From: a virus
Virus record (IMG/VR): IMGVR_UViG_3300020450_000017
Span: 1 to 64,000 of that record
Reading direction: 5' to 3' (one strand)
DNA length: 64,000 bases
Below the pieces are notes generated by a model that saw only the letters and a list, made by a program, of their open reading frames with translations, had not been told where the DNA came from and ran no database searches. How positions within the stretch are numbered: the stretch's first letter is position 1; every line of letters starts with the position of its first letter. Of the stretch, positions 7,101 through 37,503 are shown piece by piece. Made by a program: the position numbers and the translations under genes.

Positions 7101-7935
7101 TGACCCAGGAGCTATAATAGCATTTAGTGTTTCTTTAGGAATTTTAGGAGCAGCCGCTGCTATTTTAGGTGGTATGCTTCCTGTTGTAGCTTTAGGTGCA
7201 TTAGCATTAACTACTTTAGCTATCCCTATAGCAGCTACTGCGTTAGCGTTTAGTTTATTAGAAGGCATAGACCCAGCTACAATGTTAGGGTTTGCAGCTG
7301 CATTAGGAGTTTTAGGATTAACAGCTGCAGGATTTGGTCTTTTTGCTCCTCTTATAGTTGCTGGCTCTGTAGCAATAGCAGCTTTAGGAATAGCATTATT
7401 ACCTTTATCTATCGCGGGTGAGGGGATTTCAATGTTAGCAGATGGATTTGTAAAAGTAGCAGAATCTATTCAATTATTAGACATAGGTAAAGTAGCAGCT
7501 TTAGCACTTTCTATTGTAGGTCTTACTGCCTCATTAGCGGGATTAATGCTTTTAGGCCCTGCTGGACTAGCAGCTTTAACAGTAGTAGGAGGAATAGCTG
7601 CAGTTGGGGTAGCAACAGCTACAACAGGAGGTGGTGGTGACCCAGGAGTAACAACAGCTTCTCCTGGGGTGGTAGCTCCTATAGCAGGAGCAGGTACACA
7701 AGCTGGTGCTGCTGCTGCTGAAGAAGAAACTAATACTGAAGTATTTATGGCTAACATAGAACCATTAGTTGCATCTACTGTAGAAACTACTATAAGGGCT
7801 TTAGTTCCACAAATGGTAGCAGCATTAAAAGAAGGCCAAGGTAATGTTAGGGTTGTTAATGATAACTTTGCTTCTTCTGGTCCTGGTGGTGATATTAATA
7901 CATTAAGAAGATTACCTTCTGAAAACTTTGGATAA
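4171..7935 (+). CDS. Tail tape measure protein
   Basis: 1254 residues, the longest ORF in the window, placed between tube/hub and baseplate genes. The N-terminal half is helical and charged with coiled-coil character. From about residue 660, and again from 830 to 1157, it becomes strongly Ala/Leu/Ile/Gly-rich with many membrane-like segments, typical of tape measure proteins that set tail length and may insert in the host membrane. Two related hydrophobic units, AIPIAAAAAAFSLLEGVDP near 961 and AIPIAATALAFSLLEGIDP near 1017, are tandem repeats. It is much longer than T4 gp29 (590), which suggests a longer tail. Overlaps the next gene by TAATG. Confidence 0.8.
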   Translation: MATPEETRALQEQINRLIQEYLQYEQQIGTSQELRNKREQEYRDALAAAGNNQQKLNNLTNELNTELLKSQQYAQALGDDFNYVRTQLDDIVEDLGTSGDLGRNVLKNFRDIRNITSQIRDDRNLTNVMSLKELEKAREKLAVDKANLANEVERGLAQVNLNNLRGEEKTRAEEIVDNLNRGKDISSEDLEFLRTKEGIFRGMSDQDKARLMSAIDFNNVTGETGDRFAIINAELEKSIEREKTLNKTMGITGELIKGLGKIPGLSAVFKAEDIEAVKQELRESGEEGNRTLAMSKMLQKSFGNLKDALTDPATIFTFLVTKGIQFNSEVTNISKGLGVTETQATRIRNEFTSISANTMDTAINSERILTAQSELNKELSLGVQFSGDTLVNFVRLSEKIGLSAQQAAKLTLASASTGESATEFAGKSALAAAEQAKTLGITVNMKEIMADTADLTNEQLILFGRQPEAIGKTLAEVKKLGIELGDLNAISNKLLDFQGSIESELQAELLTGKQLNLERARAAALAGDQATLAKEIASQVGTISEFESMNVLQRQKLAEALGMNVDQLSGVLIRQEAINQGIAGAKDLTDEQLTAAKQMADSQNISLAEAVVKIQEQRSAQDKFNDAVMKLQRLFGELLGGPVGELLDAIVDVASVIIGPVAAALNFILTPVKMFTTLLTKVPNILKVIAAGLIALNFTSISATVGGIVDKFKGLGESVTNFGKKIMDTFSGSGEGVKGFFDKIRAGFTGAQDQASGIVFDPRMAGGGRFRDTATGRMVSEEAANAAGVFKPGAVPTGAPNLAEGAGDVADIPTVADDGSMLKEKMKNIAEGLKAFASMEVVKGGLALLVASPGLFVLSKSVEGLSKIAQIKGEEFKAAMEGIAGGIKEFGSGSILLGSAGLLIASPGLLALAVASPGLALLGATGPAIEGGLKAVSRGIGAFGENLVNILKGALALTALAIPIAAAAAAFSLLEGVDPGAIIAFSVSLGILGAAAAILGGMLPVVALGALALTTLAIPIAATALAFSLLEGIDPATMLGFAAALGVLGLTAAGFGLFAPLIVAGSVAIAALGIALLPLSIAGEGISMLADGFVKVAESIQLLDIGKVAALALSIVGLTASLAGLMLLGPAGLAALTVVGGIAAVGVATATTGGGGDPGVTTASPGVVAPIAGAGTQAGAAAAEEETNTEVFMANIEPLVASTVETTIRALVPQMVAALKEGQGNVRVVNDNFASSGPGGDINTLRRLPSENFG

Positions 7936-9029
7936 TGGGATTAATTAAAAGATATAACGAAGAAGAATTTAGGCAAAAAGTTAGAATTAATCAAGCTGCT
8001 CCCCTTGAAAAATACGATAACTTAAATACGGATAAAGATCTAGATTATAGAAATAATAATCTTCAAATACCTTTTTTTAAAACCGAAGATAGCTTAAATA
8101 AAAAATTTGGTATAGGTAATGTAGGAAGTCCTTTTGAGCAAATAGAAAAAGATGGGCAAATAGATTATGAAGTAGTAAATGTAGGGGCTATTGATAATGT
8201 TAACGCATATGCTATTCAACAATATAAAGAACTTAATAGTATAGAAGACATCCCTACAGATTTTATTAAATTTAGAATTTCTGTAGTTGATACTGTAGAC
8301 CCATCAAAAATAGATTTAATAGTATTTAGAGCCTACTTAGATGATTTAAACGACGACTATACAGGTGCTTATAATAGCTACAAATATAATGGTAGGGCAG
8401 AAAAGTTTTATACTTACAATGAATTTGAAAGAAAAATTAATTTTAGTTTTAAAATAGCAGCTCATACTAGACAAGAATTACTTCCACTATATCAAAAACT
8501 AAATTATTTAGTAGCACAAACTTCACCAGAATATTCTCCCCAAAGAAGAATTAGACCTAAATTTAGTAGATTAACAATAGGTGATTGGTGTGATGATATT
8601 CCAGGATTTTTTACTAATGTAAGTTTAAAATGGTCATCTAAATACCCATGGGAAATAAATTTAGAAGATTCTATAACGCAACACCCACATGCTTTAGATG
8701 TAAGTTGTGCATTTATTCCGATTCATAATTTTGTTCCTGAAAATAAGATTACTACACCATATATTATCCCTAATGTACAAACTAAACCGGAATCCGCGGC
8801 GGATGAAATAGTTGAAACTAATATAGGACCACAACCGAAAACAGCAGTATTGCCCCCACCTATACAATTTGATCCTATCATAGCAGAAAGAGATAATACC
8901 CAAGTAAATTTACCTGGTTTACAACCCCCTACAGTAGCATTAGATCCAAGTCTTTTACCCCAGGGCAATAATATAGGAACAAATACAGGTACTGGTACAT
9001 ATTTACCCGGTTCATTTTTAGGAGATTAA
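7935..9029 (+). CDS. Baseplate tail-tube junction protein (T4 gp48/gp54-like)
   Basis: 364 residues. The central region (about 110-230), with FRAYLDDLNDDY, GRAEKFYTYNEFERKINF and an IGDWCDDIPGFFTNV block followed by PWEI, matches the gp48/gp54 type of baseplate cap. These proteins join the baseplate to the tail tube and start tube growth. The N-terminus is charged and the C-terminal 90 residues are Pro/Thr/Gly-rich and probably disordered. Translation is probably coupled to the tape measure gene by a one-base TAATG overlap. Confidence 0.72.
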   Translation: MGLIKRYNEEEFRQKVRINQAAPLEKYDNLNTDKDLDYRNNNLQIPFFKTEDSLNKKFGIGNVGSPFEQIEKDGQIDYEVVNVGAIDNVNAYAIQQYKELNSIEDIPTDFIKFRISVVDTVDPSKIDLIVFRAYLDDLNDDYTGAYNSYKYNGRAEKFYTYNEFERKINFSFKIAAHTRQELLPLYQKLNYLVAQTSPEYSPQRRIRPKFSRLTIGDWCDDIPGFFTNVSLKWSSKYPWEINLEDSITQHPHALDVSCAFIPIHNFVPENKITTPYIIPNVQTKPESAADEIVETNIGPQPKTAVLPPPIQFDPIIAERDNTQVNLPGLQPPTVALDPSLLPQGNNIGTNTGTGTYLPGSFLGD

Positions 9030-9033
9030 TAAT

Positions 9034-9342
9034 ATGAATAGATATAATAATTTAAATATTAAAAAAACATTTCAGGGTAAAAAATATTTTAATAATCCCA
9101 TTTATCCTAATATACCTGAAAGTTTAGACGATATATATGTTGAAACTGAGTTTGGGGATAGAACAGATATTTTAGCACATCAGTTTTATAATGATCCCTC
9201 TTTATGGTGGGTAATAACAATAGCTAATCCTAATAAATTAAGAAGAGATAGTTATGTATGTAAAGAAGGATTACAAATAAGAATACCCTTAAACCCTGAA
9301 CCTATAATAAGAGCTTATAATAGACTTAATTCTAATAGATGA
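9034..9342 (+). CDS. Baseplate wedge protein (T4 gp53-like)
   Basis: 102 residues. The pattern DRTDILAHQFYNDPSLWWVI followed by ANP and a final LQIRIPL is the LysM-like fold seen in gp53-type wedge proteins and in the small tail protein X family. In T4, gp53 bridges neighbouring wedges to the hub. It overlaps the next gene through ATGA. Confidence 0.7.
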   Translation: MNRYNNLNIKKTFQGKKYFNNPIYPNIPESLDDIYVETEFGDRTDILAHQFYNDPSLWWVITIANPNKLRRDSYVCKEGLQIRIPLNPEPIIRAYNRLNSNR

Positions 9343-12833: not shown

Positions 12834-13711
12834 TGGCATTTATACCTAAAAATAAAGTTAAATTTTTATCTACCAAAGGGAAAGAACTATATAACCCTAA
12901 AACCCAAAAAGAATACATTGGGGATTATATACAGTATGGAACTAAATTTTTTAAAGGAAATAACATAGCTAATTTAGGTGATGAATTAAAACTTATAGAT
13001 CAAGTATCTAAAAACTTAGATGCTTCTAAAACAAGTCAAATATACCACGTTTTAAATAAACCTTATTATAATAAAGCTAAACAACGAAAGCAACCACCTA
13101 ATAATAAACCTACACCAACAGAAGAAGATTATACTAAAGGCTATTTTTATAGGTACTTTGCAAAGAGAAAAAATTCCCCTACTAGCTTATACGAAATTAA
13201 TAAAACTGTTTATAAAGAATTAATTCAAGGGAAATATAATAATACATTATATTTGCCCGGTAGAATCCTATGGTCCTTAGAAGATGAAACAATAAATAAT
13301 GTTAATATATTAAAAGCCGAAAAAAATTATCCAGGAATAGGATATTTATTTGGTAATATTTTAGAATATATTTTCTTTGCTAGAGATATGGAAGCAGGAA
13401 CAGATTCAGGAACTGAAAATCTTATCGCTCAAGAAGGTGAATTAGTATACCTTGATGGTACTCCTTTTCCCGCGGGAGAAAAATACCATATTCATCCTAA
13501 TAAAGGACCTATGGAAGGGGGTAAACACATTTCAGAACCCCATTCTCGTTTAAGATACACAAATCCAGGATCTTCAATACAACCAACATCTAATGTAACA
13601 CCTCAATCACCTCAACCTAGTATGAGCACATATTCTCCAACTACACCACAGGTTAATATTAGTTCATCACCTAATTTAGGAGGAGGAGGTGGAGGAGGTG
13701 GCTCTTACTAA
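12833..13711 (+). CDS. Unknown virion-associated protein with Gly-rich tail
   Basis: 292 residues, TAATG-coupled to the hub-like gene and last in the tail block. I do not recognise a named family. A segment near residue 200 (LVYLDGTPFPAGEKYHIHPNKG, then PHSRL) resembles a short unnamed domain found in structural proteins of marine phages. The C-terminal 70 residues are Pro/Ser/Thr-rich and end in a run of glycines, so are probably flexible. A structural role is inferred from position only. Confidence 0.6.
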   Translation: MAFIPKNKVKFLSTKGKELYNPKTQKEYIGDYIQYGTKFFKGNNIANLGDELKLIDQVSKNLDASKTSQIYHVLNKPYYNKAKQRKQPPNNKPTPTEEDYTKGYFYRYFAKRKNSPTSLYEINKTVYKELIQGKYNNTLYLPGRILWSLEDETINNVNILKAEKNYPGIGYLFGNILEYIFFARDMEAGTDSGTENLIAQEGELVYLDGTPFPAGEKYHIHPNKGPMEGGKHISEPHSRLRYTNPGSSIQPTSNVTPQSPQPSMSTYSPTTPQVNISSSPNLGGGGGGGGSY

Positions 13712-13732
13712 ATTTGTTTGTATATTTAAGGT

Positions 13733-15058
13733 ATGTACTACCTTATAGAAACGCAAGATCAATTAAAAAGATTTTTTAGTGATGAGGGTAGTGAATGCTA
13801 CCTACAATTTATTACTAATAATGATAATGTACACCCTAAATTACAATCGTTAAGTGCCCTTTATATCTATTCGTTTAGTAAGGAGAAAGGATTTATTATT
13901 AATTTAAACCATCCTGAGGCATTTGAGCTTGAATTACCAATAAGTTATTTAAAATCTTATACAAACATATTTGTAAAAGAAAAAATAAAAAGCTTACTAT
14001 ACATCCCTACACTTCCTTATACGGATATACAAAGTATATACTACTTACTAAAAAATGAACCACTAGAGGGATTACCTAAAACGGGCACTCACACGTTCTA
14101 TGAGCGCAAATATGGCGCGAATAACGTGAATAAAATCATTCCACTTGCAAAACACTATGAGGCGTTGGAGGAGGAATTTAATGCGATTTACCCGTATATA
14201 CTTAATTATAAGAGTGAGGAATCAAATAGGTGGTATAACGAAATATTAACTCCTACATTAGCAAAAATGGTAAGTGAGGGCTTTAAAACTAATAAGGAGT
14301 TTAAAAAACACTTTGACATAAATGAGAAATTTAGCATTAATGAAAATAAGATTTACGGATGGTATAATTTTTGCACAACAACAGGACGCCCTACAAACAA
14401 CTTTAATAGCGTTAATTTCTCAGCTTTAAAACACGATACAGGTGAGCGAGATGGCTTTGAAGCAGATAATGATTTACTAATTGAAATGGATTTTGAGGGT
14501 TACCACCCACGAATTATAGCGCGTTTATCAGGAGGTAAATTAGATAAAAGCGAATCAGTTCATATACAAATGGCAAAAATGTATTTTGATACTGAAGAGG
14601 TAGATGCTAAAATGTATAAGCAAAGTAAGGAACTAACATTCCAACAAATGTATGGTGGGATAAATCGTAAATATCTTAAATACGAATATTTTAATAAAGC
14701 ACAACAATTTATAAACACATTATGGAGTGAGTTTAACACTAAAGGTTATGTTAAAACTGTAATTGCGAGACGCAAGCTTTTAAAAAGCAATTATAAAAAC
14801 ATGACACCTCAAAAACTATTTAATTATTATATCCAAGCATTTGAAACGGAGTATAATTTTACAATGTTATCTAGATTATTTAAGTTACTTGAGGGTAAAA
14901 AAAGTAAGATAATCTTATATGTGTATGACTCTATACTAATAGATTTTGCGGTCGAAGATGGTAAAGAAACACTTCAATCAATTAGGTCAATAGTTTCGTC
15001 TGATTTTCCAATTAAAATTAAAAAAGGATATATATACTCTTCTTTGAAGGACATTTGA
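13733..15058 (+). CDS. Family A DNA polymerase-like protein
   Basis: 441 residues. The motifs of Pol I-type polymerases occur in order: TTTGRP with R219, motif A MDFEGYHPRIIARLSG with D253, motif B K299-x3-F303-x3-Y307-G308, and motif C YVYDSILIDF with D399. Both metal-binding aspartates are present, so activity is plausible. It is shorter than the Klenow fragment (about 605), and the first 180 residues show no clear exonuclease motifs. The phage also has a family B replicase, so this is a second polymerase. GAG codons are commoner than in neighbouring genes, which hints at separate origin. TTTG-TATATTTAAG lies just upstream. Confidence 0.82.
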   Translation: MYYLIETQDQLKRFFSDEGSECYLQFITNNDNVHPKLQSLSALYIYSFSKEKGFIINLNHPEAFELELPISYLKSYTNIFVKEKIKSLLYIPTLPYTDIQSIYYLLKNEPLEGLPKTGTHTFYERKYGANNVNKIIPLAKHYEALEEEFNAIYPYILNYKSEESNRWYNEILTPTLAKMVSEGFKTNKEFKKHFDINEKFSINENKIYGWYNFCTTTGRPTNNFNSVNFSALKHDTGERDGFEADNDLLIEMDFEGYHPRIIARLSGGKLDKSESVHIQMAKMYFDTEEVDAKMYKQSKELTFQQMYGGINRKYLKYEYFNKAQQFINTLWSEFNTKGYVKTVIARRKLLKSNYKNMTPQKLFNYYIQAFETEYNFTMLSRLFKLLEGKKSKIILYVYDSILIDFAVEDGKETLQSIRSIVSSDFPIKIKKGYIYSSLKDI

Positions 15059-15091: not shown

Positions 15092-15481
15092 ATGAACAAT
15101 AAACTTTATTGCACCTTTCTGCAAGATGAAGGGGTAAATGAAGTTGTAGAAAGAATTTTAGAGGAGCACGATATATTATTTAATAAGATTTTTGTTCTAG
15201 TTGCATTAGATGACAATAAAACAATGTTAACCTATAATATAGACGGACCAGTCTACAACCTACAATTGCCAAATACAATTCTTGTACATAGGAAAAAACA
15301 AACTAATACATTATACACTATAAATGCTTTAAATGAAGTAATAAGATACTTAAATAATGGTGTTTTAGATACTACGTATCAGGTGGATTGGACACGGTTT
15401 CGAAATTGCTTATTATTAACACGTCCTGGTGGATTTAAAAAGGTAAAAACACGTTTAAAAACTATAATTGAAGTAGAATGA
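15092..15481 (+). CDS. Hypothetical protein
   Basis: 129 residues, not recognised. Mixed alpha/beta composition without signal peptide, membrane segment or clear motif. It follows the Pol A-like gene after 33 bases that include TATTTATTA, and overlaps the next gene through ATGA, so the two are probably co-translated. Confidence 0.6.
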   Translation: MNNKLYCTFLQDEGVNEVVERILEEHDILFNKIFVLVALDDNKTMLTYNIDGPVYNLQLPNTILVHRKKQTNTLYTINALNEVIRYLNNGVLDTTYQVDWTRFRNCLLLTRPGGFKKVKTRLKTIIEVE

Positions 15482-16049: not shown

Positions 16050-16928
16050 ATGTTATTATTAGATACGGTAGGCAATACTCCCCTACTAAAATTTGAGTTC
16101 CCAAATGGTACTCTATGGGGTAAAGCAGAGTTTTTAAACCCAGGAGGATCAGTAAAAGATAGACCTGTAGCATGGATACTTAAAGAAGCTATTCGTACTA
16201 AAAAACTTAAACCTGGAGATACTATAGTTGAAGCTACCTCGGGTAATATGGGTATTTCATTAGCAATGTTTAGTGCTAATTTAGGTTTTAAATGTGTTAT
16301 AGTAATGCCCTCTAATATGAGTAACGAACGTAAAGTTATGTTAAAATCATTTGGTGCTGAGTTAATAGAGGTACCTGCTGGTGACTTTGATGCTGCTATC
16401 TTACTAAGAAATAAATTAGCCAAAGATAATGGTTGGTTTAATTTTAACCAATTCCATAACCCGCTCAATATAGAATCACATTGGTATACTACGGGAATGG
16501 AGATATGCAGAGATATTCCATTTGGCACTTGTGTAGATGCATTTGTTGCTGGAACAGGAACAGGAGGGACAATAATGGGTGCGGGTAAATTTATCCAAAA
16601 CCAGTTTCCTATATGTAAATTAATAGCTTTAGAACCAGCCGAATCACCTGTTATGTCTGGTGGTGAGCCTGGTTTACATGGTATTCAGGGTATTGGTGAT
16701 GGTAGTAAGTTTTTAGTTGATTTAAATGATATCAATCGTATTGAAATAGTACCTACTGAAGAATCAGTTGAAAAATCTAAATCATTAGCTAAAGACTATG
16801 GCTTATTTGTAGGTTTTTCTGCAGCTGCTAATTTTTTAGTTGCAGAAAGGTTAATTGAAGAAGGGTATGCTAAAAATGTAGTTACTATCCTTTGTGATAG
16901 GGGAGAAAGATATTTTAGTTGTTTGTAA
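16050..16928 (+). CDS. cysK: Cysteine synthase (O-acetylserine sulfhydrylase family)
   Basis: 292 residues, a little shorter than bacterial CysK (about 320). It has GNTPLLKF at the N-terminus, NPGGSVKDRP with the PLP lysine at K36, the substrate loop ATSGNMGISLA, and the PLP phosphate-binding GTGTGGTIMG. The enzyme makes cysteine from O-acetylserine and sulfide. The fold also covers CysM and related beta-synthases, so exact substrate is open. As an auxiliary metabolic gene in a phage it could supply cysteine or reduced sulfur during infection. The only close neighbour of note is the Cys-rich gene upstream. Confidence 0.88.
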   Translation: MLLLDTVGNTPLLKFEFPNGTLWGKAEFLNPGGSVKDRPVAWILKEAIRTKKLKPGDTIVEATSGNMGISLAMFSANLGFKCVIVMPSNMSNERKVMLKSFGAELIEVPAGDFDAAILLRNKLAKDNGWFNFNQFHNPLNIESHWYTTGMEICRDIPFGTCVDAFVAGTGTGGTIMGAGKFIQNQFPICKLIALEPAESPVMSGGEPGLHGIQGIGDGSKFLVDLNDINRIEIVPTEESVEKSKSLAKDYGLFVGFSAAANFLVAERLIEEGYAKNVVTILCDRGERYFSCL

Positions 16929-16993
16929 AGGCCCGCTGGTAGAATTTGGATTCCCTGACCTAAGGTATTATATTTACCCAAAATTAAAAGGTC

Positions 16994-17746
16994 ATGAATC
17001 TAGATGAAATTAGAAAGCGCATGGACCGCTTGCAAAATAAGTCCAACGGCAAGTCAAAATCAGACTATAAAGCCAACTTTTGGAAACCACCTAGCGGTGA
17101 GAAATCAGTTATTCGTATTGTGCCCTATAAGCACAATAAAGAAATACCATTTACTGAATTGTATTTCTACTTCGGTATAGACAAACCTAGAATGATGTCA
17201 CTCTCAAATTTTGATGAGTCTGACCCGATTTTGGAGTTTGCATCACAATTACGTAAGTCTAATGACCCAGACAATATGGCATTAGCAAAGAAACTTTATC
17301 CTAAAATGCGTACGTTCGCACCTGTAATTGTTAGAGGTGAGGAAGATAAAGGTGTACGTTTTTGGGAATTTGGTAAGATGGTTTACCAAGAACTCCTTGG
17401 AGTTATGATGGATGAAGATTATGGTGACATTACTGACATTGCTCAGGGACGGGATGTTACCGTAGAAGTTATTCCGGCAGCAGAAACTGGTAAAATGTAC
17501 GACACAACTACTGTTCGTGTTAAGCCAGTTCAGACCCCACTTTCAGATAGTGCCGAAACAGTTGAATCATTCCTTGAAAACCAAAAGAATGTTATTGATT
17601 TATTCAATAAGTACTCATTTGATGAAATGAAGGAATCACTTCAAAAGTACTTAGCACCAAGTGAAGAACAGGAAACGGTAGAGGCAACGTCACCTGTAAA
17701 AGAAAAAGTTGACCTCGATTCTAAAATAGACGATTTATTCGGTTAA
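16994..17746 (+). CDS. Single-stranded DNA-binding protein (T4 gp32-like)
   Basis: 250 residues (T4 gp32: 301). The N-terminus is basic, followed by FWKPPSGEKSVIRIVP (about 29-44), the OB-fold entry typical of gp32 relatives. The tail is acidic and ends in LDSKIDDLFG, as expected for the partner-binding C-terminus. The Cys/His zinc site of T4 gp32 is not seen. It would coat single-stranded DNA in replication and recombination, and sits one base before the UvsX gene. Confidence 0.85.
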   Translation: MNLDEIRKRMDRLQNKSNGKSKSDYKANFWKPPSGEKSVIRIVPYKHNKEIPFTELYFYFGIDKPRMMSLSNFDESDPILEFASQLRKSNDPDNMALAKKLYPKMRTFAPVIVRGEEDKGVRFWEFGKMVYQELLGVMMDEDYGDITDIAQGRDVTVEVIPAAETGKMYDTTTVRVKPVQTPLSDSAETVESFLENQKNVIDLFNKYSFDEMKESLQKYLAPSEEQETVEATSPVKEKVDLDSKIDDLFG

Positions 17747-17747
17747 T

Positions 17748-18893
17748 ATGGCTAAAAAATCCAACAATAAAGCCCTGGATGGGGGAAGTCTTACTGACGA
17801 ACTAGCAATTTCGCTAAATAAAAAGTTCAGTAAAGAATATAATAAAGTTGCTTACTTCCTCAACGGCGGGGATGAATCACCAACAGATGTTACATCTTGG
17901 GTATCTACTGGATGTACACCACTCGACTTGGCGATCTCTAACAGACCAAATGGGGGTTTGCCTGTTAGTAAAATTGTTGAGATTACGGGCCTAGAGCAAA
18001 GCGGTAAATCCCTCCTAGCAGCTCACGTAATTGCTTCTACACAAAAGCAAGACGGTGTGGCAATATACATTGATACTGAATCAGCACTAGATGCACAGTT
18101 CTTAACCGCCATAGGAGTTGATGTTGATAAAATGCTTTACATCCCACTTGATACAATTGAGGATGTTTTTGAAGCAATGGAAGACATCATCGTAAAAATT
18201 CGCGAAAAGAACAAAGATAAACTAGTGACTATTGTAGTAGACTCTGTAGCCGCCGCAACCACGAAAATTGAGTCTGCAGCCGACTACGACAAAGATGGTT
18301 ATGCTACTGCTAAAGCAATCATCATGTCTAAATCAATGCGCAAAATTACTAATTTAATAGGTAAGCAAAAGATCCTGTGTGTATTTACTAATCAGTTACG
18401 TCAAAAACTAAACGCGATGCCGTTTGGAGATCAATATACAACATCAGGAGGTAAAGCGCTCCAATTCCACGCTTCAGTTCGCTTGCGACTCAAAGGAGTA
18501 GGCAAGATTAAAGAGAAAGTTAATGGTGTGGATGAAGTAGTTGGACAGGAAGTTGAATGCGTGGTTGTTAAAAACCGCCTAGGCCCACCTAACCGAAAAG
18601 TTCGTTATAACGTCTTTTACGATTCCGGGATTGATGACATTTATGGTACCTTAAAGTTGCTTAAAGAATACAAAATTGTTAAGCAAGGGGGAGCATGGTA
18701 TAAATACACCACAGCAGATGGAGAAACCCATCAGTTCTTAGCTAAAGAATTTGGAGATTTATTAGAAAGCCACCCCACAGCTAAAGAAGAATTGTATGAA
18801 GCCCTTTGTGAGAAATACATTATGAAGTATCGTCACGAAAAGGAGGATGGTCTAGATCGTGACCCCGAAGAAACCATAACTGAGAATGAGTAA
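17748..18893 (+). CDS. uvsX: RecA-like recombinase (UvsX)
   Basis: 381 residues (T4 UvsX: 391). Walker A is GLEQSGKS at 81-88, a Walker B-like strand TIVVDSVAAA follows, and there are RecA-type segments such as FTNQLRQK and TSGGKALQFHASVRLRL. It forms filaments on single-stranded DNA and drives strand exchange in recombination-dependent replication. Genes 32, uvsX, rnh and 41 are contiguous, forming a replication/recombination operon. The start follows the gp32 stop directly. Confidence 0.93.
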   Translation: MAKKSNNKALDGGSLTDELAISLNKKFSKEYNKVAYFLNGGDESPTDVTSWVSTGCTPLDLAISNRPNGGLPVSKIVEITGLEQSGKSLLAAHVIASTQKQDGVAIYIDTESALDAQFLTAIGVDVDKMLYIPLDTIEDVFEAMEDIIVKIREKNKDKLVTIVVDSVAAATTKIESAADYDKDGYATAKAIIMSKSMRKITNLIGKQKILCVFTNQLRQKLNAMPFGDQYTTSGGKALQFHASVRLRLKGVGKIKEKVNGVDEVVGQEVECVVVKNRLGPPNRKVRYNVFYDSGIDDIYGTLKLLKEYKIVKQGGAWYKYTTADGETHQFLAKEFGDLLESHPTAKEELYEALCEKYIMKYRHEKEDGLDRDPEETITENE

Positions 18894-19905
18894 TTTCGAA
18901 GATATCTTAAACAATATATCCCGTGAAGAGAAGCACCCTAATGACAGGGTGCTTCTTATTGACGGACTAAACATATTTCTAAGAGCATTTGCTGTAAATG
19001 GTGCACTAAATGAAAAAGGTGTTCCTGTAGGTGGTATTATGGGTTTTATGAAATCCCTTGCACTTGCCATTAGACAAATGGAACCAACTAGGGTAATTGT
19101 TGTTTATGATGGTGCCGGGGGTAGTAAAAGACGAAGAAAAATCAACCCAGACTATAAATCAAACAGAACCCCTAAGCGTGTAACTAAATTTGATGCTTTT
19201 AACTCATTGCAAGATGAGAAGGAAGCAATGAAGATTCAATTTAGAAGACTACTCAGTTACCTTGAGTTACTTCCAATTGATGTTTACAGCGTGGACAATG
19301 TTGAAGCGGACGATGTAATTGCGTATATCGCGCAAAATGTGCTAGGAAACGAAGCAATCATTATGTCCGCTGACCAGGATTTTTTACAATTAGTAAACGA
19401 TCGAATTGTAGTTTGGTCACCAAATAAGAAAAAATACTACACAAAAGAGCAAATATTTACTGAATATGGAATACCAGCCCATAATTTTTTAATGTATAAA
19501 TGTTTAATGGGTGATAAATCAGATAACCTTGAAGGTATTAAAGGTTTAGGCCCTAAAAAAATGGCTAAGGTACTTCCAGATATTACTGGAAAAGAGGTTA
19601 ATTTAGATTATCTTATACGTTATTCTTCAACACAAGATAGTTTAATGCATAAACGAATTATTGAAAATAGAGTAACGTTGGAAACAAACGAAAAGATGAT
19701 GTCACTTAAAGACCCAATTATGTCAGGTCAAATAAAAATTCAAATAAGTGATTTAGCTTCTCGTCCAACAAATTTGCTCCACCGAAATGATTTTATTATG
19801 TTATATAATGAAGATTATATGGGAAATAACTTACAGAATCCTGATATATGGTTAAATGAACATTTTCTTAAACTAAATAATCTTGCAAAATTAACACATG
19901 AGTAA
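18886..19905 (+). CDS. rnh: 5'-3' exonuclease of the FEN family (T4 RNase H-like)
   Basis: 339 residues (T4 RNase H: 305). Acidic metal-site motifs are visible: VLLIDGLNIF with D26, VEADDVIAYI, and SADQDFLQL, then the helix-3-turn-helix GDKSDNLEGIKGLGPKK. It removes RNA primers and 5' flaps from lagging-strand fragments. It overlaps uvsX by 8 bases and gene 41 by 8 bases, so translation is probably coupled. Confidence 0.9.
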   Translation: MSNFEDILNNISREEKHPNDRVLLIDGLNIFLRAFAVNGALNEKGVPVGGIMGFMKSLALAIRQMEPTRVIVVYDGAGGSKRRRKINPDYKSNRTPKRVTKFDAFNSLQDEKEAMKIQFRRLLSYLELLPIDVYSVDNVEADDVIAYIAQNVLGNEAIIMSADQDFLQLVNDRIVVWSPNKKKYYTKEQIFTEYGIPAHNFLMYKCLMGDKSDNLEGIKGLGPKKMAKVLPDITGKEVNLDYLIRYSSTQDSLMHKRIIENRVTLETNEKMMSLKDPIMSGQIKIQISDLASRPTNLLHRNDFIMLYNEDYMGNNLQNPDIWLNEHFLKLNNLAKLTHE

Positions 19906-21241
19906 GTTAGAACAGTACGGCCACAATTTCCAGGTTAAAGTACTATCTACACTTGTTAAAGATAGAGAATTTATCCAACAAGTAGCAGATATTGTATCTC
20001 CTGATTTTTTTGATAATGAAGCTAATAAGTGGATTGTAAGCAAAACCTTAGAATACTTTAATGAATTTAGAACTACCCCTACAATGGAGGTATTTAAAGT
20101 TGAAGTAGAAAAGATCCGTAATGAAATTCAACAAGTTGCTGTAAAAGAACAACTTAAAGAAACATTTAAATCTACTAAATCACAGGATCTTGATTTTGTT
20201 AAACAAACATTTCTTGATTTTTGCAGGAACCAAACACTTAAATCCGCCCTTCTTTCCTCAGTTGATCTACTTGAAATAGGAAATTATGAAGATATCCGTA
20301 GACTTATTGATAATGCACTTAAAGCAGGTGTAGAAAAAAATCTTGGTCACGATTATATGGATGAAATTGAAGCCCGTTACCAAGAAGAAGCCCGAAACAC
20401 AATTGAAACCCCATGGAATGAGATTAATAGTTTATTAAGTGGTGGTTTAGGTACAGGTGATTTAGGTTTACTTGTAGGTAATCCTGGTGGAGGTAAATCG
20501 TGGGCACTTGTTGCTTTAGGTGGACATGCCGTTAAACTTGGTTATACAGTTTTACATTATACACTTGAACTTTCTGACATGTATGTTGGTCAGAGATATG
20601 ATGCTTTCTTTACAGAAATACCAGTTAATGAGATTAAAATCCATAAAACAACTGTTAAAGAAGAACTAGGAAATATGAGAGGAAAATTGTATATTAAACA
20701 ATATCCTGCGGGTAAAGCCAACGTAAATACGATATTAGCGCATGTAGATAAATGTCGCGGCCAAGGCATTGAGCCTGATCTTATTGTATTAGATTACGCG
20801 GATCTTTTATATACCAGGAATGGAAAAGAAAAACGAGATAAATTGGATGACATTTATACTTCATTAAGAGGATTAGCTACTGAATTAAAAATCCCTATTT
20901 GGACAGCATCACAAAGTAATAGATCAGCAGCTCGAGATAATATTATACAAGGTGACCAAATTGCAGAAAGTTATTCAAAAATTATGATTTCAGATTTTGC
21001 TCTCTCATTATCAAGAAAAACCGAGGATAAAGAAAATGGTACTGGAAGATTCCATGTTATGAAAAATAGATATGGAGCGGATGGCTTAACATTTAATGCA
21101 CTTATGGATACATCTATAGGAAAAATTGATTTTACTAACCGTATAAATAATGAAGAAACCAGCAGTCCTGATGGAGCAGGTTTTACAGGAAATGAAAGAA
21201 GAAATCTCCAAAGGGCTGCTGAAAATATTTTTAACTTTTAA
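19898..21241 (+). CDS. Replicative DNA helicase (T4 gp41 / DnaB family)
   Basis: 447 residues (T4 gp41: 475). Walker A GNPGGGKS is at 194-201, Walker B is LIVLDYADLL, and the sensor region includes TASQSNRSA. The C-terminal QIAESYSKIMISDFALSLSR and MKNRYG segments are typical of the DnaB RecA-like core. It unwinds DNA ahead of the fork as a hexamer. No primase gene is recognised in the window. Confidence 0.92.
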   Translation: MSKLEQYGHNFQVKVLSTLVKDREFIQQVADIVSPDFFDNEANKWIVSKTLEYFNEFRTTPTMEVFKVEVEKIRNEIQQVAVKEQLKETFKSTKSQDLDFVKQTFLDFCRNQTLKSALLSSVDLLEIGNYEDIRRLIDNALKAGVEKNLGHDYMDEIEARYQEEARNTIETPWNEINSLLSGGLGTGDLGLLVGNPGGGKSWALVALGGHAVKLGYTVLHYTLELSDMYVGQRYDAFFTEIPVNEIKIHKTTVKEELGNMRGKLYIKQYPAGKANVNTILAHVDKCRGQGIEPDLIVLDYADLLYTRNGKEKRDKLDDIYTSLRGLATELKIPIWTASQSNRSAARDNIIQGDQIAESYSKIMISDFALSLSRKTEDKENGTGRFHVMKNRYGADGLTFNALMDTSIGKIDFTNRINNEETSSPDGAGFTGNERRNLQRAAENIFNF

Positions 21242-28085: not shown

Positions 28086-28582
28086 GTGAAAAAGATTTAG
28101 ATATTAAAATTAAAATCTTAGCTAAACAAATAAATGATGAACATAGAGGTGATCCTACTCCTATTGTAATGGTGTGTATATTAAATGGGGGATTTATGTT
28201 TTTTAGTGATTTAGTAAAAGAAATAGAGATTCCTGTTGAAATAGATTTTATTCGTTGTAAATCTTATTTTGGTAGAAAACAAGGTGATTTAGTTGTGTCA
28301 AAAGATCTAGAAACTAAAATTAAAGGTAAACATGTTTATTTAGTAGATGATATTTTAGATTCTGGAAATACTATGGTAGCTGTTAAAAAATTTCTATCTG
28401 TTAAAGAACCTAAATCAATAACTCCAGTAGTAGCAATTTATAAAGAAAGTGTGGATTTTGATAGGGTTCTTCATATATTATATCAAGATGTAGATTCTAT
28501 ATTTGATCCTTGGTATATAGGATATGGTATGGATGATGATAAGGGACATAATAGAAATTTAAAAACAATTTATACTATATAA
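28070..28582 (+). CDS. Purine phosphoribosyltransferase (hypoxanthine-guanine type)
   Basis: 170 residues, the usual length for Hpt. The PRPP-binding loop reads VYLVDDILDSGNTM, and CILNGGFMFFSDLV plus IDFIRCKSYFG are typical of the family; FDPWYIGYGMD near the end fits the purine-binding hood. It joins PRPP to hypoxanthine or guanine. Its place between queE and folE raises the question whether it salvages guanine released by base exchange, or acts on a deazapurine (inference). TAATG overlap with folE. Confidence 0.82.
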   Translation: MEQAISEKDLDIKIKILAKQINDEHRGDPTPIVMVCILNGGFMFFSDLVKEIEIPVEIDFIRCKSYFGRKQGDLVVSKDLETKIKGKHVYLVDDILDSGNTMVAVKKFLSVKEPKSITPVVAIYKESVDFDRVLHILYQDVDSIFDPWYIGYGMDDDKGHNRNLKTIYTI

Positions 28583-29277
28583 TGGAGAATAAGAGAAGAA
28601 AAGTACACGAAGAATTAGAAGTAGTACAAACAGGTTTTGCAAACGGTGTTGCTGAAGGTTTTCCACTCCAACAATCAGAAAAAGATAAGATGATTGATGA
28701 AGCCGAAGTAGCATATGGTAAATTTTTAGATGCTTTAAAATGTGATTGGAGAAACGATCCCAACTCAATGGAAACTCCAAGACGTGTTGCTAAAGCTTAT
28801 GTAAATGATTTATGGGCGGGACGTTATACAGCTATGTCGCCTATAACTTCTTTTCCAAGTGATGGTTATGATGGAGTTATTATAGAAAGAAACATACCCC
28901 TTACATCTATGTGTTCCCACCACCACCAAACAATTGGGGGTGTAGTCCATATTGGGTATATTGCGGGGACAGAAGGGCAAGTAATTGGTTTATCTAAATT
29001 AAATCGTATTGTAGAATTATTTGGCCGTAGGGGGGCAATTCAAGAACAACTAACCTCTGCAATTCATAATGCTGTAGATAAGATTACTGAAGGTAATAAA
29101 GGTGTTATTGTTACAATTGTAGGTACTCACAATTGTGTTAGTTGTAGAGGTGTTAAACACCAAGGTGCAGCAATGGTTACTACCAAAGCATCAGGCGCAT
29201 TTAGAGATGATACAAATCAAGCACGTAAAGAGTTCTTCGACAGCTTGAAAATTAATAATGGAGGACACAATATTTAA
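28582..29277 (+). CDS. folE: GTP cyclohydrolase I
   Basis: 231 residues (E. coli FolE: 222). Zinc and active-site residues are present: C111 and H114 in MCSHHHQT, and C185 in THNCVSCRG; TPRRVAKAY and IPLTSMCSHHH are family signatures. It converts GTP to dihydroneopterin triphosphate, the first step towards both folate and preQ0. Position at the end of the queD-dpdA-queC-queE operon argues for the deazaguanine route. Confidence 0.93.
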   Translation: MENKRRKVHEELEVVQTGFANGVAEGFPLQQSEKDKMIDEAEVAYGKFLDALKCDWRNDPNSMETPRRVAKAYVNDLWAGRYTAMSPITSFPSDGYDGVIIERNIPLTSMCSHHHQTIGGVVHIGYIAGTEGQVIGLSKLNRIVELFGRRGAIQEQLTSAIHNAVDKITEGNKGVIVTIVGTHNCVSCRGVKHQGAAMVTTKASGAFRDDTNQARKEFFDSLKINNGGHNI

Positions 29278-30339: not shown

Positions 30340-30587
30340 AAAAGTTTTTATATTTTAGTGCCCCCTGGTGTGGGCCTTGTGAACAATTAAGTCCTGTTAT
30401 GGATGAACTTCATGCAGAAGGAATGACAGTCCAAAAAATTGATGTAGATTCTAACCCTGAAATTGTCCAATCATTTAATATTAGAAACGTTCCTACTGTA
30501 ATTTTACAAGTAGATAACGTAGAAAAGGGAAGGAAAATTGGCCTTGCGTCAAAATCTATGTATATTGACCTATATAATCAAGGTTAA
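30336..30587 (+). CDS. Thioredoxin/glutaredoxin-like protein
   Basis: 83 residues, shorter than E. coli thioredoxin (109). The active site is WCGPC in YFSAPWCGPCEQL, and the cis-proline loop is NVPTVI. It reduces disulfides; here the probable client is the phage ribonucleotide reductase. TAATG-type coupling to the DNA polymerase gene follows. Confidence 0.88.
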   Translation: MKKFLYFSAPWCGPCEQLSPVMDELHAEGMTVQKIDVDSNPEIVQSFNIRNVPTVILQVDNVEKGRKIGLASKSMYIDLYNQG

Positions 30588-32302
30588 TGTATAAAAATTG
30601 TTATGTTCAAAGAGGTGAAGAATGGAATCATTATAGAATCCATTTATGGACTGATGAGGGATACTCTATAGAAGATTACCAAAATTATGGTTATTTAGAA
30701 TGTACAGATAGTGCTGCTACTCATATTGGCCTTAAAGGAGAAAATCTTAAGAGGGTATTTAATTGGGAAAGAAATGACCCTCGTATGCACTATTCTGATC
30801 ATACTAGGGGAAATATTCACACTAAATTTCTTATAGACAAATATGGTGATGATGATACTCCCTCGGTAACTCATAGAGAAGTATTTTTTGATATTGAGAT
30901 TGAGATAGGAGGTGCTCTTACCCCTGAATATATCAAAAAAGCCCCTAAACCAGTTACTTCAATTGCCCTTTGGGATAAACAATTAGATGATTGGAAAATC
31001 ATTATCCTAGATAAGGATAATAATATTGAACATACAGTTGATAAACAGGGGAGAGAAGTAATCCCTGTTAAGAGAGAATCTGATTTACTAGAAAAATTTC
31101 TTAACACATTAGAAGAGATAGAACCAGATATCCTTATAGGATATAATAGTGATTATTTCGACATTCCTTATCTTTACTATAGAATTAAAAATACATTAGG
31201 AGATAGATATGCTAATAGAATGTCTCCTATTAAAATAGTAGAAGAACAAACATGGAATGAAGATGTACCTATCAGAATAGCCGGAGTTACTTCTCTTGAT
31301 TATATGCGCTTACATAAAAAGTATAGTTTTAAAGATGAACCATCTTTTAAATTAGATGCTTTAGGTGAAAAATATGTTGGTCAAAAGAAGATTGAATATG
31401 AAGGTTCACTTGATAGGTTATTTGCAGAGGATAAAGAAAAATTTATTGAATATAACTTTGTTGATGTTTTAATACTTAAAAAACTAGACGAAAAATTTCA
31501 ATATATTGATCTAACTAAAAACCTTGCCCATAAAGGAAAAGTGTTATATGAAGAAGTGTATTTATCTTCTAAAATTCAGGATGGTGCTATTTCAAGTTGG
31601 TTATTATCTGAAAATATTATTCCACCTAATAAGGACTTAGACCCACTTACTAAGAAAAATTATGCAGGTGGTTATTTATTTTGCCCTAAAACAGGTATTT
31701 ACAATTATATGTTTGATGAAGACCTTACATCACTATACCCTTCTATTATCATGTCTTTAAATATAGGCAAGGAAACTTATGTAGGTAGAGTATTAGATTT
31801 ATTTGATGATAGGAATAATAGATTAGGTTTAAACGACTTAGAAAAAATGGTCAACGAAGACCCCGAAAAAGAGATGCCTGTTGAAAATCTTCAACGTAAA
31901 CAAAATTATATGAAGGTTAAAGATGTTATAGATACTATCAAAAAGAATAATCTATCTGTAACAGCTAATGGTGTTATGTTTAGAACAGATAAACCATCTA
32001 CTCTAAATGTTATTCTGGATAAATGGTTTGATGAAAGGGTAATGTATAAGAAAGCTATGAAAAAAGCTTATAAAAATGGTAATAAAAAAGAAGGTGAATT
32101 AAATCATCTTAAGCAATATACTATGAAAATTTTGCTTAACTCACTTTATGGTGCTACCGCTTTACCATCATTTAGGTATGGTAGTGTTATTTTATCTGAA
32201 GGCATCACACTTACAGGACAACGTATCATTCAAGAATCGGCTTTATTTGCAAATACACATATGAATAAGGTATTACGAGGAGAATTAAAATTAGAATTAT
32301 GA
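30587..32302 (+). CDS. Family B DNA polymerase, N-terminal piece (gp43A)
   Basis: 571 residues. It carries the 3'-5' exonuclease motifs (FFDIEIEI with D102 and E104; IGYNSDYFDIPYL; YNFVDVLILKKLD) and palm motif A, DLTSLYPS with catalytic D379, then motif B near KILLNSLYGA. The protein stops just before motif C, which is on the next gene. T4 gp43 is a single 898-residue chain; the two pieces here total 877. The pieces must assemble to be active. The ATGA overlap would give balanced synthesis. Confidence 0.92.
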   Translation: MYKNCYVQRGEEWNHYRIHLWTDEGYSIEDYQNYGYLECTDSAATHIGLKGENLKRVFNWERNDPRMHYSDHTRGNIHTKFLIDKYGDDDTPSVTHREVFFDIEIEIGGALTPEYIKKAPKPVTSIALWDKQLDDWKIIILDKDNNIEHTVDKQGREVIPVKRESDLLEKFLNTLEEIEPDILIGYNSDYFDIPYLYYRIKNTLGDRYANRMSPIKIVEEQTWNEDVPIRIAGVTSLDYMRLHKKYSFKDEPSFKLDALGEKYVGQKKIEYEGSLDRLFAEDKEKFIEYNFVDVLILKKLDEKFQYIDLTKNLAHKGKVLYEEVYLSSKIQDGAISSWLLSENIIPPNKDLDPLTKKNYAGGYLFCPKTGIYNYMFDEDLTSLYPSIIMSLNIGKETYVGRVLDLFDDRNNRLGLNDLEKMVNEDPEKEMPVENLQRKQNYMKVKDVIDTIKKNNLSVTANGVMFRTDKPSTLNVILDKWFDERVMYKKAMKKAYKNGNKKEGELNHLKQYTMKILLNSLYGATALPSFRYGSVILSEGITLTGQRIIQESALFANTHMNKVLRGELKLEL

Positions 32303-33219
32303 AAGAAGAAATACCATGGTGGATCTGTAATGAGGAAGATAAAAACTTCTGCACATATGTGGATACAGATTCTAATTATTTTCATGCTGAACCACTTTTG
32401 AAGCACTTATATCCTAATTTTTCAGAATTACCTGCTGAAGAACAGGACGATTTACTTGAAAAAATGGCTTTAAAATACCAAGATTTAATTACAGAATATT
32501 ATGATACTTTAGCTAGGGAAGCATTTAATATAGATAAACACCGTTTAGAAATGAAAACGGAGTGCACTATTCGTTCTGGTTTTTTCTCAGGTAAAAGAAG
32601 ATATGCACAATATATTACTAAAAAAGAAGGTATTAAAGTAGAAGATATAGATGTTAAAGGTCTTGATTTTATGAAATCAAATTTCCCTCCCCTATTTAAA
32701 AAATTCTTTAATGGTATTTTAGATAAAATCCTATTTGGTGCTACTAGAAATGAAATCGATCAGGAAATTTTAGAGTTTAAAAATAGTTTAGATACATTAC
32801 CTCTAGAGTTACTAGGTAAGCCAACAGGAGTAAAGGATATTAAAAAGTATATTGAACGTCCCCCGGGTGCTGGAAATATATTTACTACCCTTAAAACCGG
32901 GGCCCCTGTAAATGTTAAAGCAGCAGTTAGATATAACGATTTCCTTAAATTTAAGGGTTTAGATAAAAAACACTCTCAAATAGTTGCTGGTGATAAAATC
33001 AAATGGGTTTATTTAAAAGATAATCCTTATAAAATTGATACTATGGGTTTCTTAGATTTTGATTTTCCAGAAGAAATTCGTACATTTGTAGAGCAATATA
33101 TTGATAGAGATAAAGCATTTGATTCTATACTTAAAAATAAGCTAGAATCATTTTATAAAGACTTAAGTTGGGGTAGTTTAACCCTTAATACACATGTAAA
33201 CAATTTTTTCTCATTCTAA
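32299..33219 (+). CDS. Family B DNA polymerase, C-terminal piece (gp43B)
   Basis: 306 residues. Motif C, TYVDTDSNY with D22 and D24, opens this piece; the rest is palm and thumb, with ECTIRSGFFSGKRRYAQYI corresponding to the KKRY region after motif C. The last residues (NNFFSF) resemble the clamp-binding tail of T4 polymerases. It has no independent polymerase activity by itself, since catalytic D379 is on the other chain. TAATG coupling to the clamp gene. Confidence 0.92.
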   Translation: MKEEIPWWICNEEDKNFCTYVDTDSNYFHAEPLLKHLYPNFSELPAEEQDDLLEKMALKYQDLITEYYDTLAREAFNIDKHRLEMKTECTIRSGFFSGKRRYAQYITKKEGIKVEDIDVKGLDFMKSNFPPLFKKFFNGILDKILFGATRNEIDQEILEFKNSLDTLPLELLGKPTGVKDIKKYIERPPGAGNIFTTLKTGAPVNVKAAVRYNDFLKFKGLDKKHSQIVAGDKIKWVYLKDNPYKIDTMGFLDFDFPEEIRTFVEQYIDRDKAFDSILKNKLESFYKDLSWGSLTLNTHVNNFFSF

Positions 33220-34247: not shown

Positions 34248-34250
34248 TAA

Positions 34251-35866
<1,616 letters not shown>

Positions 35867-35867
<1 letters not shown>

Positions 35868-36757
35868 TGGATTTATTTGTAGAAAAATATAGACCCCAAG
35901 ATTTAAATGGGTTTGTAGGAGACGATACTATTCGTCTTAAAATCCAAGAGTACCTTAAAACAGGTAAACTACAAAATCTACTATTGTTTGGTCCAGCGGG
36001 GACAGGAAAAACCTCGCTGGCCAAACTAATAGTAGGGCAACTGGGTGCGGATCACCTTTATATTAATGCCTCAGATGAAAGGGGTATTGACACAATTAGA
36101 GATAAAATTATCCCTTTTGCTTCTAGTATTGGGTTTAATGGATTAAAAGTAGTTATATTAGATGAATCAGATTACCTCACAGCCCAAGCACAGGCAACTC
36201 TTCGAAATGTTATGGAAAGTTTCAGCGCATCCTGTAGGTTCATTCTTACTTGCAATTACCTTGATCGTATCATTTCTCCCCTTCAGTCTCGTTGTATGGC
36301 TTTTGGAATTACTCCTCCTTCTAAAAAAGAAGTGGGACAACATGTTCTCCAAATCTGTGAAAGTGAAGGAATTAACTATACTAAGGAAGATCTGGGACAA
36401 GTAATTATTACTCATTACCCCGATATTAGAAAAATCCTTAATACCTTACAGGGCAGTTTAAAAGATAATCAATTAGTATTAGATACTAAATCCCTTAAAA
36501 ATACTGATTTTGAAAATAAAGTAGTTAATGGATTAAAAAATAAAACCCCTCTTAAAGATATAAGACAAATGATAGCAGATAGTGGTGCTACACAATTTGA
36601 ATCCTTATTTAGGTGTCTTTATGATAATGTAGAGGAATATACTACAAATATAGGTGATGCGATAATTATAATAGCTCAGTATCAATATGAGTATGGATTT
36701 GTAGTAGATAAAGAAATCTGTATTGCCGCAATGTTAAATAAATTATTAAAGTTATGA
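35867..36757 (+). CDS. Clamp loader large subunit (T4 gp44-like)
   Basis: 296 residues (T4 gp44: 319). AAA+ motifs: VEKYRPQDLNGFVG, Walker A GPAGTGKTS, Walker B VVILDESDYL, sensor 1 FILTCNYLDRI, and the SRC arginine finger (LQSRCMAF). It opens and loads the clamp at primer ends with gp62. Its partner gene lies two small ORFs downstream. Confidence 0.93.
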
Positions 36758-36885: not shown

Positions 36886-37103
36886 TGCAACAACAAAATT
36901 TTAATTTAGATCTTAGCCAAACTACTCCGGTAATATGTGAAAAATGTAGGCACGAACATTTTATTGAAGTTAACATAATACGTAAACTATCTCCTATGCT
37001 ATCGCCAACAGGACAACCAGCATTAATTCCTATTCCTGTTTATGCCTGTTCTAAATGTAGTCATGTAAATGAAGAATTCCTCCCGAAAGATGACGCCCTT
37101 TGA
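36885..37103 (+). CDS. Small zinc-ribbon protein
   Basis: 72 residues. Two Cys pairs, CEKC and CSKC, spaced about 35 residues apart, form a probable zinc ribbon. Similar small proteins beside clamp loader genes occur in T4-like marine phages. Role unknown. Confidence 0.65.
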   Translation: MQQQNFNLDLSQTTPVICEKCRHEHFIEVNIIRKLSPMLSPTGQPALIPIPVYACSKCSHVNEEFLPKDDAL

Positions 37104-37503
37104 TTTTTTAAAATTAGTACACGATAAAAAAATTAAATGGGAAGACCTTAATGAAGACGAACAAAAAACCTATAATAAATTTATTATTAATAGGGCGTTA
37201 GGGTTTAATAATAATATGTTAGATATAGTAAATCGTTTACAAGGATATGATGTTACTCCAAAAGAATCTTTTAAATACTACCAATCTATGACTGGTAATA
37301 AATTTAGGTTTAATAAGTGGATTAAAGGAAGCAAAGAAAAATCTTTTAACTCTGAATTATTACTTAAGATTGCTAATTATCTAGAGTGTTCTAAAAAACA
37401 AGCTAGTGAATATTTAAATATTCTATCTAAAAAAGAAACTAAAAATTTACTTAAACATATAGGTTTACAAGATTCTGAAATCAAGAAATTAATGAAAAAA
37501 TGA
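37090..37503 (+). CDS. Clamp loader small subunit (T4 gp62-like)
   Basis: 137 residues from MTPFDFLKLV; a start 21 bases earlier would overlap the previous gene more. The pattern of INRALGF, a VN-LQ helix, then FKYYQSM...RFNKWIKG, and a helical end with ASEYLNILS fits diverged gp62 of marine T4-like phages, and its place near gp44 agrees. Gp62 joins four gp44 subunits in the loader. Confidence 0.65.
   Translation: MTPFDFLKLVHDKKIKWEDLNEDEQKTYNKFIINRALGFNNNMLDIVNRLQGYDVTPKESFKYYQSMTGNKFRFNKWIKGSKEKSFNSELLLKIANYLECSKKQASEYLNILSKKETKNLLKHIGLQDSEIKKLMKK

What the first reader, a model, noticed from the sequence alone, without database searches (positions are those of the whole stretch)
13733..15058. 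Second DNA polymerase: a compact family A enzyme in a T4-like phage
Motifs A, B and C and the TGR motif of Pol I are present in order, with both catalytic Asp and the K-x3-F-x3-YG helix. T4-like phages normally use only family B gp43, which this phage also has. The protein is just 441 residues, sits between tail genes and cysK, and shows different codon preference (more GAG).
Basis: seen in the sequence. Interest (0 to 1): 0.75.

Follow-up and report, generated by a model that had tools for sequence, protein, structure and literature searches.

The report
Phage's conserved second DNA polymerase
A virus of bacteria carries, besides its main DNA-copying enzyme, a small second one of a different family; this second enzyme was described in 2024 in a few related phages and turns out to be widespread and nearly always paired with an unstudied small neighbour gene, but what it does has not been tested.

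Summary
Window 13733-15058 encodes a 441-residue family A DNA polymerase (Pfam DNA_pol_A E 7e-13; model pLDDT 93.8; VIA Z 28.0 to Bst Pol I, 410 residues, rmsd 3.4) with both catalytic Asp. It is a second polymerase: the same phage has a T4-type family B gp43, split into two overlapping genes. The family is already published as divPolA1 (Yutin et al. 2024), so this is a new member, not a new kind. The calls add: (1) the family is large (303 loci read here); (2) the residue at the ribonucleotide 'steric gate' (E. coli Glu710) is His in 302 of 302 readable copies, 85 of 85 among those not retrieved by that motif; (3) a 129-residue protein of unknown function follows in 274 of 278 loci; (4) 21 of 21 records of 50 kb or more also hold a full-size replicase, family B (16) or A (5), so divPolA1 stays while the replicase changes; (5) it shares a promoter-like element with the SSB gene. 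Best reading: a proofreading-free gap-filling/repair polymerase serving the SSB-UvsX-FEN-helicase module. Activity and role are inferred, not shown.

The parts
13733..15058 (+). divPolA1: compact family A DNA polymerase, 441 aa, with vestigial 3'-5' exonuclease-like N-terminal domain
15092..15481 (+). x129: 129-aa partner protein of unknown function, downstream of divPolA1 in 274 of 278 loci with room
13699..13727 (+). promoter-like element TGG-N19-TATATTT before divPolA1 (motif defined post hoc)
16947..16975 (+). same promoter-like element before the SSB gene
16994..17746 (+). gp32-type single-strand binding protein
17748..18893 (+). UvsX-like recombinase
18886..19905 (+). 5'-3' exonuclease (FEN / Pol I N-terminal type), possible working partner
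19898..21241 (+). DnaB-type replicative helicase (gp41-like)
30587..32302 (+). gp43 family B DNA polymerase, N-terminal half (exonuclease, motifs A and B)
32299..33219 (+). gp43 family B DNA polymerase, C-terminal half (motif C YVDTDS)
35867..36757 (+). AAA+ clamp-loader large subunit (the gp44 name is recalled)
37069..37503 (+). clamp-loader A subunit (Phage_clamp_A; the gp62 name is recalled)

Best explanation
The gene encodes divPolA1, an accessory family A DNA polymerase that works beside the phage's main replicase. Shown by sequence and model: Pol I palm and fingers with both metal-binding Asp, an N-terminal exonuclease-like domain without the catalytic Asp-x-Glu pair, and about 85 fewer residues where Pol I has its thumb. 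Shown by comparative genomics: it is a core, vertically inherited gene, accompanied by a full-size replicase of family B or A in every long record, fixed beside a small protein (x129) and upstream of SSB, UvsX, 5'-3' exonuclease and helicase. Inferred: it has DNA polymerase activity without proofreading; it fills short gaps or extends 3' ends that SSB/UvsX and the separate 5'-3' exonuclease create (primer removal, Okazaki maturation, recombination repair), so that polymerase and exonuclease act like a bacterial Pol I split into two proteins; x129 helps it bind DNA or other proteins.
For: Fold and motifs. Invariant active site: D253 and H258 302 of 302, D399 300 of 300, K299/F303/Y307/Q368 301 of 301 readable rows. 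No Asp-x-Glu in the exo I strand in any register for more than 3 of 105 rows (column counts); Yutin et al. report all three exonuclease Asp replaced. Co-occurrence with a replicase: 21 of 21 records >=50 kb. Synteny: x129 in 274 of 278, SSB 219 of 222, 5'-3' exonuclease 111 of 119, helicase 35 of 35 loci with room. Co-inheritance r 0.93-0.95. Shared promoter-like element with SSB. A family A enzyme with Ser in place of Glu883 is active (Tt72 polymerase, PMC9324360 passages), so motif C YD[S/A] does not preclude catalysis. A DnaG-type Toprim match is present in 4 of 5 records tested, so it is not needed as primase there.
Against: No biochemistry. The 5'-3' exonuclease lies four to six genes downstream, beside UvsX and helicase rather than beside divPolA1. 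In T4 the replicase itself fills such gaps (recalled), so a second enzyme is not required. The invariant His at the steric-gate position and the loss of Arg754 hint at altered nucleotide handling that a plain gap filler would not need. The gene sits 12-57 nt behind a baseplate-side gene in 75 of 78 loci, so late co-transcription is possible. Of 18 records shorter than 50 kb only 2 show a replicase, which fragments explain but which is not support.
Confidence: 0.55

Rival explanations
1. A lesion-bypass or end-joining polymerase (Pol theta/nu-like role): lack of proofreading and a reduced thumb let it extend damaged or mismatched ends.
For: Exonuclease pair lost; short thumb region; Pol theta structures are among the Foldseek hits, ranked below Pol I.
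Against: Best structural matches are Pol I enzymes; no lesion-related gene is consistently adjacent.
Confidence: 0.15
2. An initiation polymerase: with x129 as a DNA-binding partner it extends origin or D-loop primers and then hands over to the replicase.
For: Near-obligate pairing with x129; the only structural matches listed that run over x129's whole length as a repeated group are polyomavirus T-antigen origin-binding domains, VIA Z 6.1-6.6, 82-84 aligned, rmsd 3.5-3.9, and 3 of 39 members weakly hit Pfam T_Ag_DNA_bind, best E 0.013; promoter-like element shared with SSB.
Against: Z below 8 may be only a common arrangement; ACT-like domains score higher over the N-terminal half (Z 7.3); Foldseek best E 0.1; no PDB sequence hit at E<=10; other Pfam families hit as weakly.
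Confidence: 0.12
3. It uses ribonucleotides: a primase-like or RNA polymerase-like palm enzyme, since the Glu steric gate is replaced by an invariant His.
For: His at the Glu710 position in 302 of 302, 85 of 85 in rows not retrieved by that motif; Glu710 blocks ribonucleotides in Pol I (PMC9324360 passages); family A was co-opted as RNA polymerase in T7 (PMC11348598 section 13).
Against: His is still bulky and could itself gate; F303 and Y307 are kept as in DNA polymerases; best folds are DNA polymerases; DnaG-type match already present in 4 of 5 records.
Confidence: 0.1
4. The polymerase is catalytically dead or purely structural (scaffold).
For: Arg754 and Glu883 equivalents are not kept.
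Against: Both Asp and the Lys758, Phe762, Tyr766, Gln849 equivalents are invariant at 23-37% overall identity between distant members.
Confidence: 0.06

Closest known systems
divPolA1 (Yutin et al. 2024, Virol J 21:200, PMC11348598; Flavobacterium phage immuto group, 14 phages, 155-190 kb)
   Same: Family A palm with conserved catalytic residues, lost exonuclease residues, short thumb, extra to a regular polymerase, replication genes downstream, GroEL/GroES beside the regular polymerase (also in the window, 33951-35867). Immuto gp001 is 33% identical over 98%.
   Different: The window phage has a split family B replicase; partner x129 and the His at the steric gate are not named in the text I read (sections 13 and 14 and term searches; figures and supplements not seen).
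Bacterial DNA polymerase I large fragment (Klenow, Bst, Taq)
   Same: Overall fold, VIA Z 28.0 to 3hpo, 410 aligned, rmsd 3.4; motifs A, B, C.
   Different: 441 aa against about 540-605; about 16% identity; Glu710 to His, Arg754 not kept, His-Asp-Glu to Tyr-Asp-Ser/Ala; exonuclease pair lost.
Regular family A replicase of the same phage group (immuto gp199, 777 aa)
   Same: Family A.
   Different: Keeps exo I DTET and motif C HDQ; no usable profile match to divPolA1 by hhalign.
divPolA2 of barbaviruses (PMC11348598)
   Same: Diverged family A enzyme beside a PolB.
   Different: Described as having a unique N-terminal domain and a variable neighbourhood; not compared here by sequence.
Minimal split Pol III of group 2.2 jumbo phages (PMC7824862)
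   Same: Another accessory polymerase beside a family B replicase (passages).
   Different: A different, unrelated catalytic domain.

Membership tests
Family A DNA polymerase (PF00476) | Profile match above curated cut-off | tested here: met
   48.6 bits vs 34.3 for the window protein; 32 of 41 diverse members match at E<=0.001
Family A DNA polymerase (PF00476) | Catalytic Asp of motifs A and C, O-helix Lys/Phe/Tyr | tested here: met
   D253 302/302, D399 300/300, K299, F303, Y307 301/301 readable rows
Family A DNA polymerase (PF00476) | Template-directed DNA synthesis | not testable with these tools
   needs protein
divPolA1 | Homology to immuto gp001 and relatives | tested here: met
   tblastn E 3e-66 to MW353176, 33.1% over 98%
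divPolA1 | 3'-5' exonuclease catalytic residues lost | tested here: met
   exo I Asp-x-Glu absent; the places of the other two Asp were only judged by eye
divPolA1 | Truncated thumb | tested here: met
   profile positions 197-205 stand opposite Klenow-chain 233-326 (the N-terminal flank of that alignment is weak, 1.4 bits)
divPolA1 | Encoded in addition to a regular polymerase | tested here: met
   window: split gp43; 21 of 21 records >=50 kb
divPolA1 | Conserved replication genes downstream | tested here: met
divPolA2 | Unique N-terminal globular domain, no exonuclease fold | not tested
   the window protein's whole length aligns to Pol I 300-876 instead
x129 as T-antigen-type origin-binding fold | Fold match | tested here: inconclusive
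   VIA Z 6.1-6.6; Foldseek best E 0.1

The most novel reading that the evidence does not exclude
divPolA1 and x129 form a two-protein enzyme with relaxed or altered sugar selection, set by the invariant His in place of the Glu steric gate, that makes or extends RNA-containing or origin-bound primers in T4-like phages and has stayed in place while the main replicase was exchanged between families A and B.
Probability: 0.12. Interest if true: 0.72.

Novelty: new member of a known kind. Interest (0 to 1): 0.45.

Why it matters
A second polymerase that is retained whatever replicase is used points to a distinct task in phage replication or repair that textbook T4 does not show. In the 2024 survey, subtrees with two polymerases in one genome were rare (2 subtrees). 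The family is common in aquatic viral contigs, short enough to express easily, and its altered nucleotide-binding residues and fixed partner protein make clear, testable predictions.

Tried and rejected
Recent acquisition from codon bias: rejected; co-inheritance r 0.93-0.95 and no GAG excess in distant relatives.

Rhodothermus phage RM378 as a relative: its 'DNA polymerase' p024 is a family B exonuclease part, and neither p024 nor p025 matches divPolA1 or x129.

HMO-2011-type polymerase of Roseobacter phage CRP-3 (the type is recalled): only the palm matches (27% over 182 residues) and its motif A keeps Glu.

x129 as a sliding clamp: I suspected this from its strand order; no clamp appeared among the listed fold matches, which does not exclude it. 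The gp45 search of the own record rang nowhere, not even in the controls, so it says nothing.

Late-operon reading: tight spacing to the upstream gene first suggested it; the shared promoter-like element with SSB weakens it. The element was defined after seeing these sites and most matching loci are close kin: exact form 19 of 105 before divPolA1, 35 of 92 before SSB, 0 or 1 each before ten other genes. A strict TTG-N20-TAnnTTTG form is not enriched (1 match, 1.8 expected). The general sigma-70 scan found nothing above chance.

Replicase swap bringing its own recombinase: UvsX was not detected by the window query in the family A lineage, but immuto's recombinase is still UvsX-like, only 20% identical.

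Selection bias: 217 of 303 rows contain the motif A pattern with which their own scan was run; the 86 rows free of it were counted apart. Arg754 replaced by Tyr looked near-invariant in 105 rows (99 of 105) but is Tyr, Lys, Glu or Arg in the wider set.

Full report
What was claimed and what is there. The ORF at 13733-15058 reads as 441 residues. Pfam gives only DNA_pol_A, E 7.3e-13; the nearest solved sequences are Taq, Klenow and Bst Pol I. An AlphaFold2 model built on 41 sequences (the window protein and 40 viral-contig relatives) has mean pLDDT 93.8, pTM 0.91. The 50 Foldseek PDB matches listed are all family A DNA polymerases; VIA-align gives Z 28.0, rmsd 3.4, 410 aligned residues to Bst Pol I large fragment 300-876. 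The finding is real and more than chance.

A second polymerase. The own record (a virus record of 72,964 bases) also encodes family B polymerase, as two genes that overlap by four bases: 30587-32302 and 32299-33219. The first holds the exonuclease domain and motifs A and B, the second motif C (YVDTDS). T4-type SSB, UvsX, 5'-3' exonuclease, helicase and clamp-loader subunits are present.

Already described. Yutin et al. 2024 (PMC11348598; abstract, sections 13 and 14 read, plus term searches) name this family divPolA1, in 14 phages of 155-190 kb around immuto, beside a regular polymerase of family A, B or C, with short thumb and inactive exonuclease; they suggest a role in replication. A full-text search for the name found only this paper and its preprint (open-licence PMC library). 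The window protein is 33% identical to immuto gp001 over 98% of its length and meets every feature of the family that could be tested.

Size and spread. In 50,697 phage records tblastn finds a match in nine, of which six cover at least 80% of the query: four immuto records, LR756508 (484 kb) and Microcystis phage Mel-JY01 (annotated hypothetical); the other three are partial palm matches. Two bacterial MAG contigs also carry it, one labelled Rickettsiaceae; whether these are phage contigs binned with bacteria was not tested.

Active site. Over the 303 loci the motif A Asp and a His five residues on are present in 302 of 302 readable rows, motif C Tyr-Asp in 300 of 300, Lys, Phe and Tyr of the O helix in 301 of 301. 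The His stands where Taq and Klenow have the Glu that excludes ribonucleotides (alignments; role of Glu710 from PMC9324360 passages). Because several scans used a pattern containing this His, rows free of such a pattern were counted apart: 85 of 85 readable. The residue after the motif C Asp is Ser (187) or Ala (113), not Glu; in Thermus phage Tt72 polymerase a Ser at that place goes with an active enzyme. The place of Arg754 varies: Tyr 252, Lys 21, Glu 12, Arg 11 among 303. In the N-terminal domain no register between residues 20 and 33 can give Asp-x-Glu in more than 3 of 105 rows (column counts), yet H34, H60 and D98 are invariant in those 105 rows; in the wider set H34 is His in 287 of 292 and D98 Asp in 299 of 300 readable rows. 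The dead exonuclease domain is thus still constrained.

Neighbourhood. Order in relatives: baseplate-side genes, divPolA1, x129, (PALP/cysK in some), SSB, UvsX-like recombinase, 5'-3' exonuclease, helicase, NrdB, NrdA. Where enough downstream sequence is held, x129 is found in 274 of 278 loci, SSB in 219 of 222, exonuclease in 111 of 119, helicase in 35 of 35. In the phage collection x129 occurs in six records, the same six with a long divPolA1 match. Its model (pLDDT 92.2) has no clear match: Foldseek best E 0.1, VIA best Z 7.3 over 63 residues to ACT-like domains, and Z 6.1-6.6 over 82-84 residues to T-antigen origin-binding domains.

Persistence beside different replicases. Of 39 records searched with both polymerase families, 21 are 50 kb or longer and all 21 hold a full-size replicase besides divPolA1: 16 family B (5 of them in two pieces: G000, G005, G006, G032, W02) and 5 family A (G014-G017, W01); of the 18 shorter records 2 show one. 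On a 29-row tree the rows with split family B group together and the family A rows lie in one larger clade with unlabelled rows; two end branches are long and their place is unsure. Pairwise identity of divPolA1 tracks that of x129, SSB, exonuclease and helicase (r 0.93-0.95, 39 loci whose pairs are not independent), with divPolA1 the fastest changing (median 36% against 41-52%).

Expression hint. TGG-N19-TATATTT occurs five times in the window against 0.77 expected, at 13699 just before divPolA1 and at 16947 before SSB among others. Across loci it is found before divPolA1 (19 of 105) and SSB (35 of 92) but at most once before each of ten other genes of the cluster. It resembles Bacteroidetes promoters (recalled). 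It was noticed by eye first, so it is a lead only.

Mechanism. The simplest account is a Pol I split in two: a polymerase without proofreading (divPolA1) and a separate 5'-3' exonuclease in the same cluster, acting on gaps, primers and recombination ends coated by SSB and UvsX. The polymerase activity is strongly implied; the task is inferred. A primase role is unlikely where a DnaG-type primase is present (4 of 5 records). The His gate keeps open a role with ribonucleotides, and x129 a role at defined DNA sites.

Verdict. A real, well-conserved, published but functionally untested accessory polymerase. Added here are the reach of the family, the invariant His, the near-obligate partner and the 21 of 21 co-occurrence. 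Whether the partner or the His are shown in figures or supplements of the 2024 paper could not be checked.

Noticed in passing
window 30587-33219: gp43 is split between motifs B and C into two overlapping genes; the split is also seen in relatives G001, G005 and G006, and other two-piece PolBs in G032 and LR756508.
   Followed up: partly
L133 (G005) 1569-1835: An 88-aa ORF of unknown function sits between the two gp43 halves in one relative.
   Followed up: no
window 15092-15481: x129: strongly conserved small protein (HRKKxTNTLYT core) with no family or clear fold match.
   Followed up: partly
window 16050-16928: PALP-family enzyme (cysK-like) inserted in the replication cluster of some relatives and absent in others.
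   Followed up: no
window 33951-35867: Phage-encoded GroES and GroEL next to the split gp43, as Yutin et al. report for the regular polymerases of this group.
   Followed up: partly
window 28582-29277: GTP cyclohydrolase I; immuto is annotated with a deazaguanine set including DpdA, so modified guanine in this phage's DNA is possible.
   Followed up: no
L136 and L137, divPolA1 at 8001-9302 and 7902-9182: divPolA1 on contigs of an uncultured bacterium MAG and of a Rickettsiaceae MAG: a host hint or a binning artefact.
   Followed up: no
L001:3268-4341: The UvsX-like recombinase of immuto is only 20% identical to the window UvsX over 245 residues, low beside the cluster's SSB and helicase (medians 47-52%).
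   Followed up: partly
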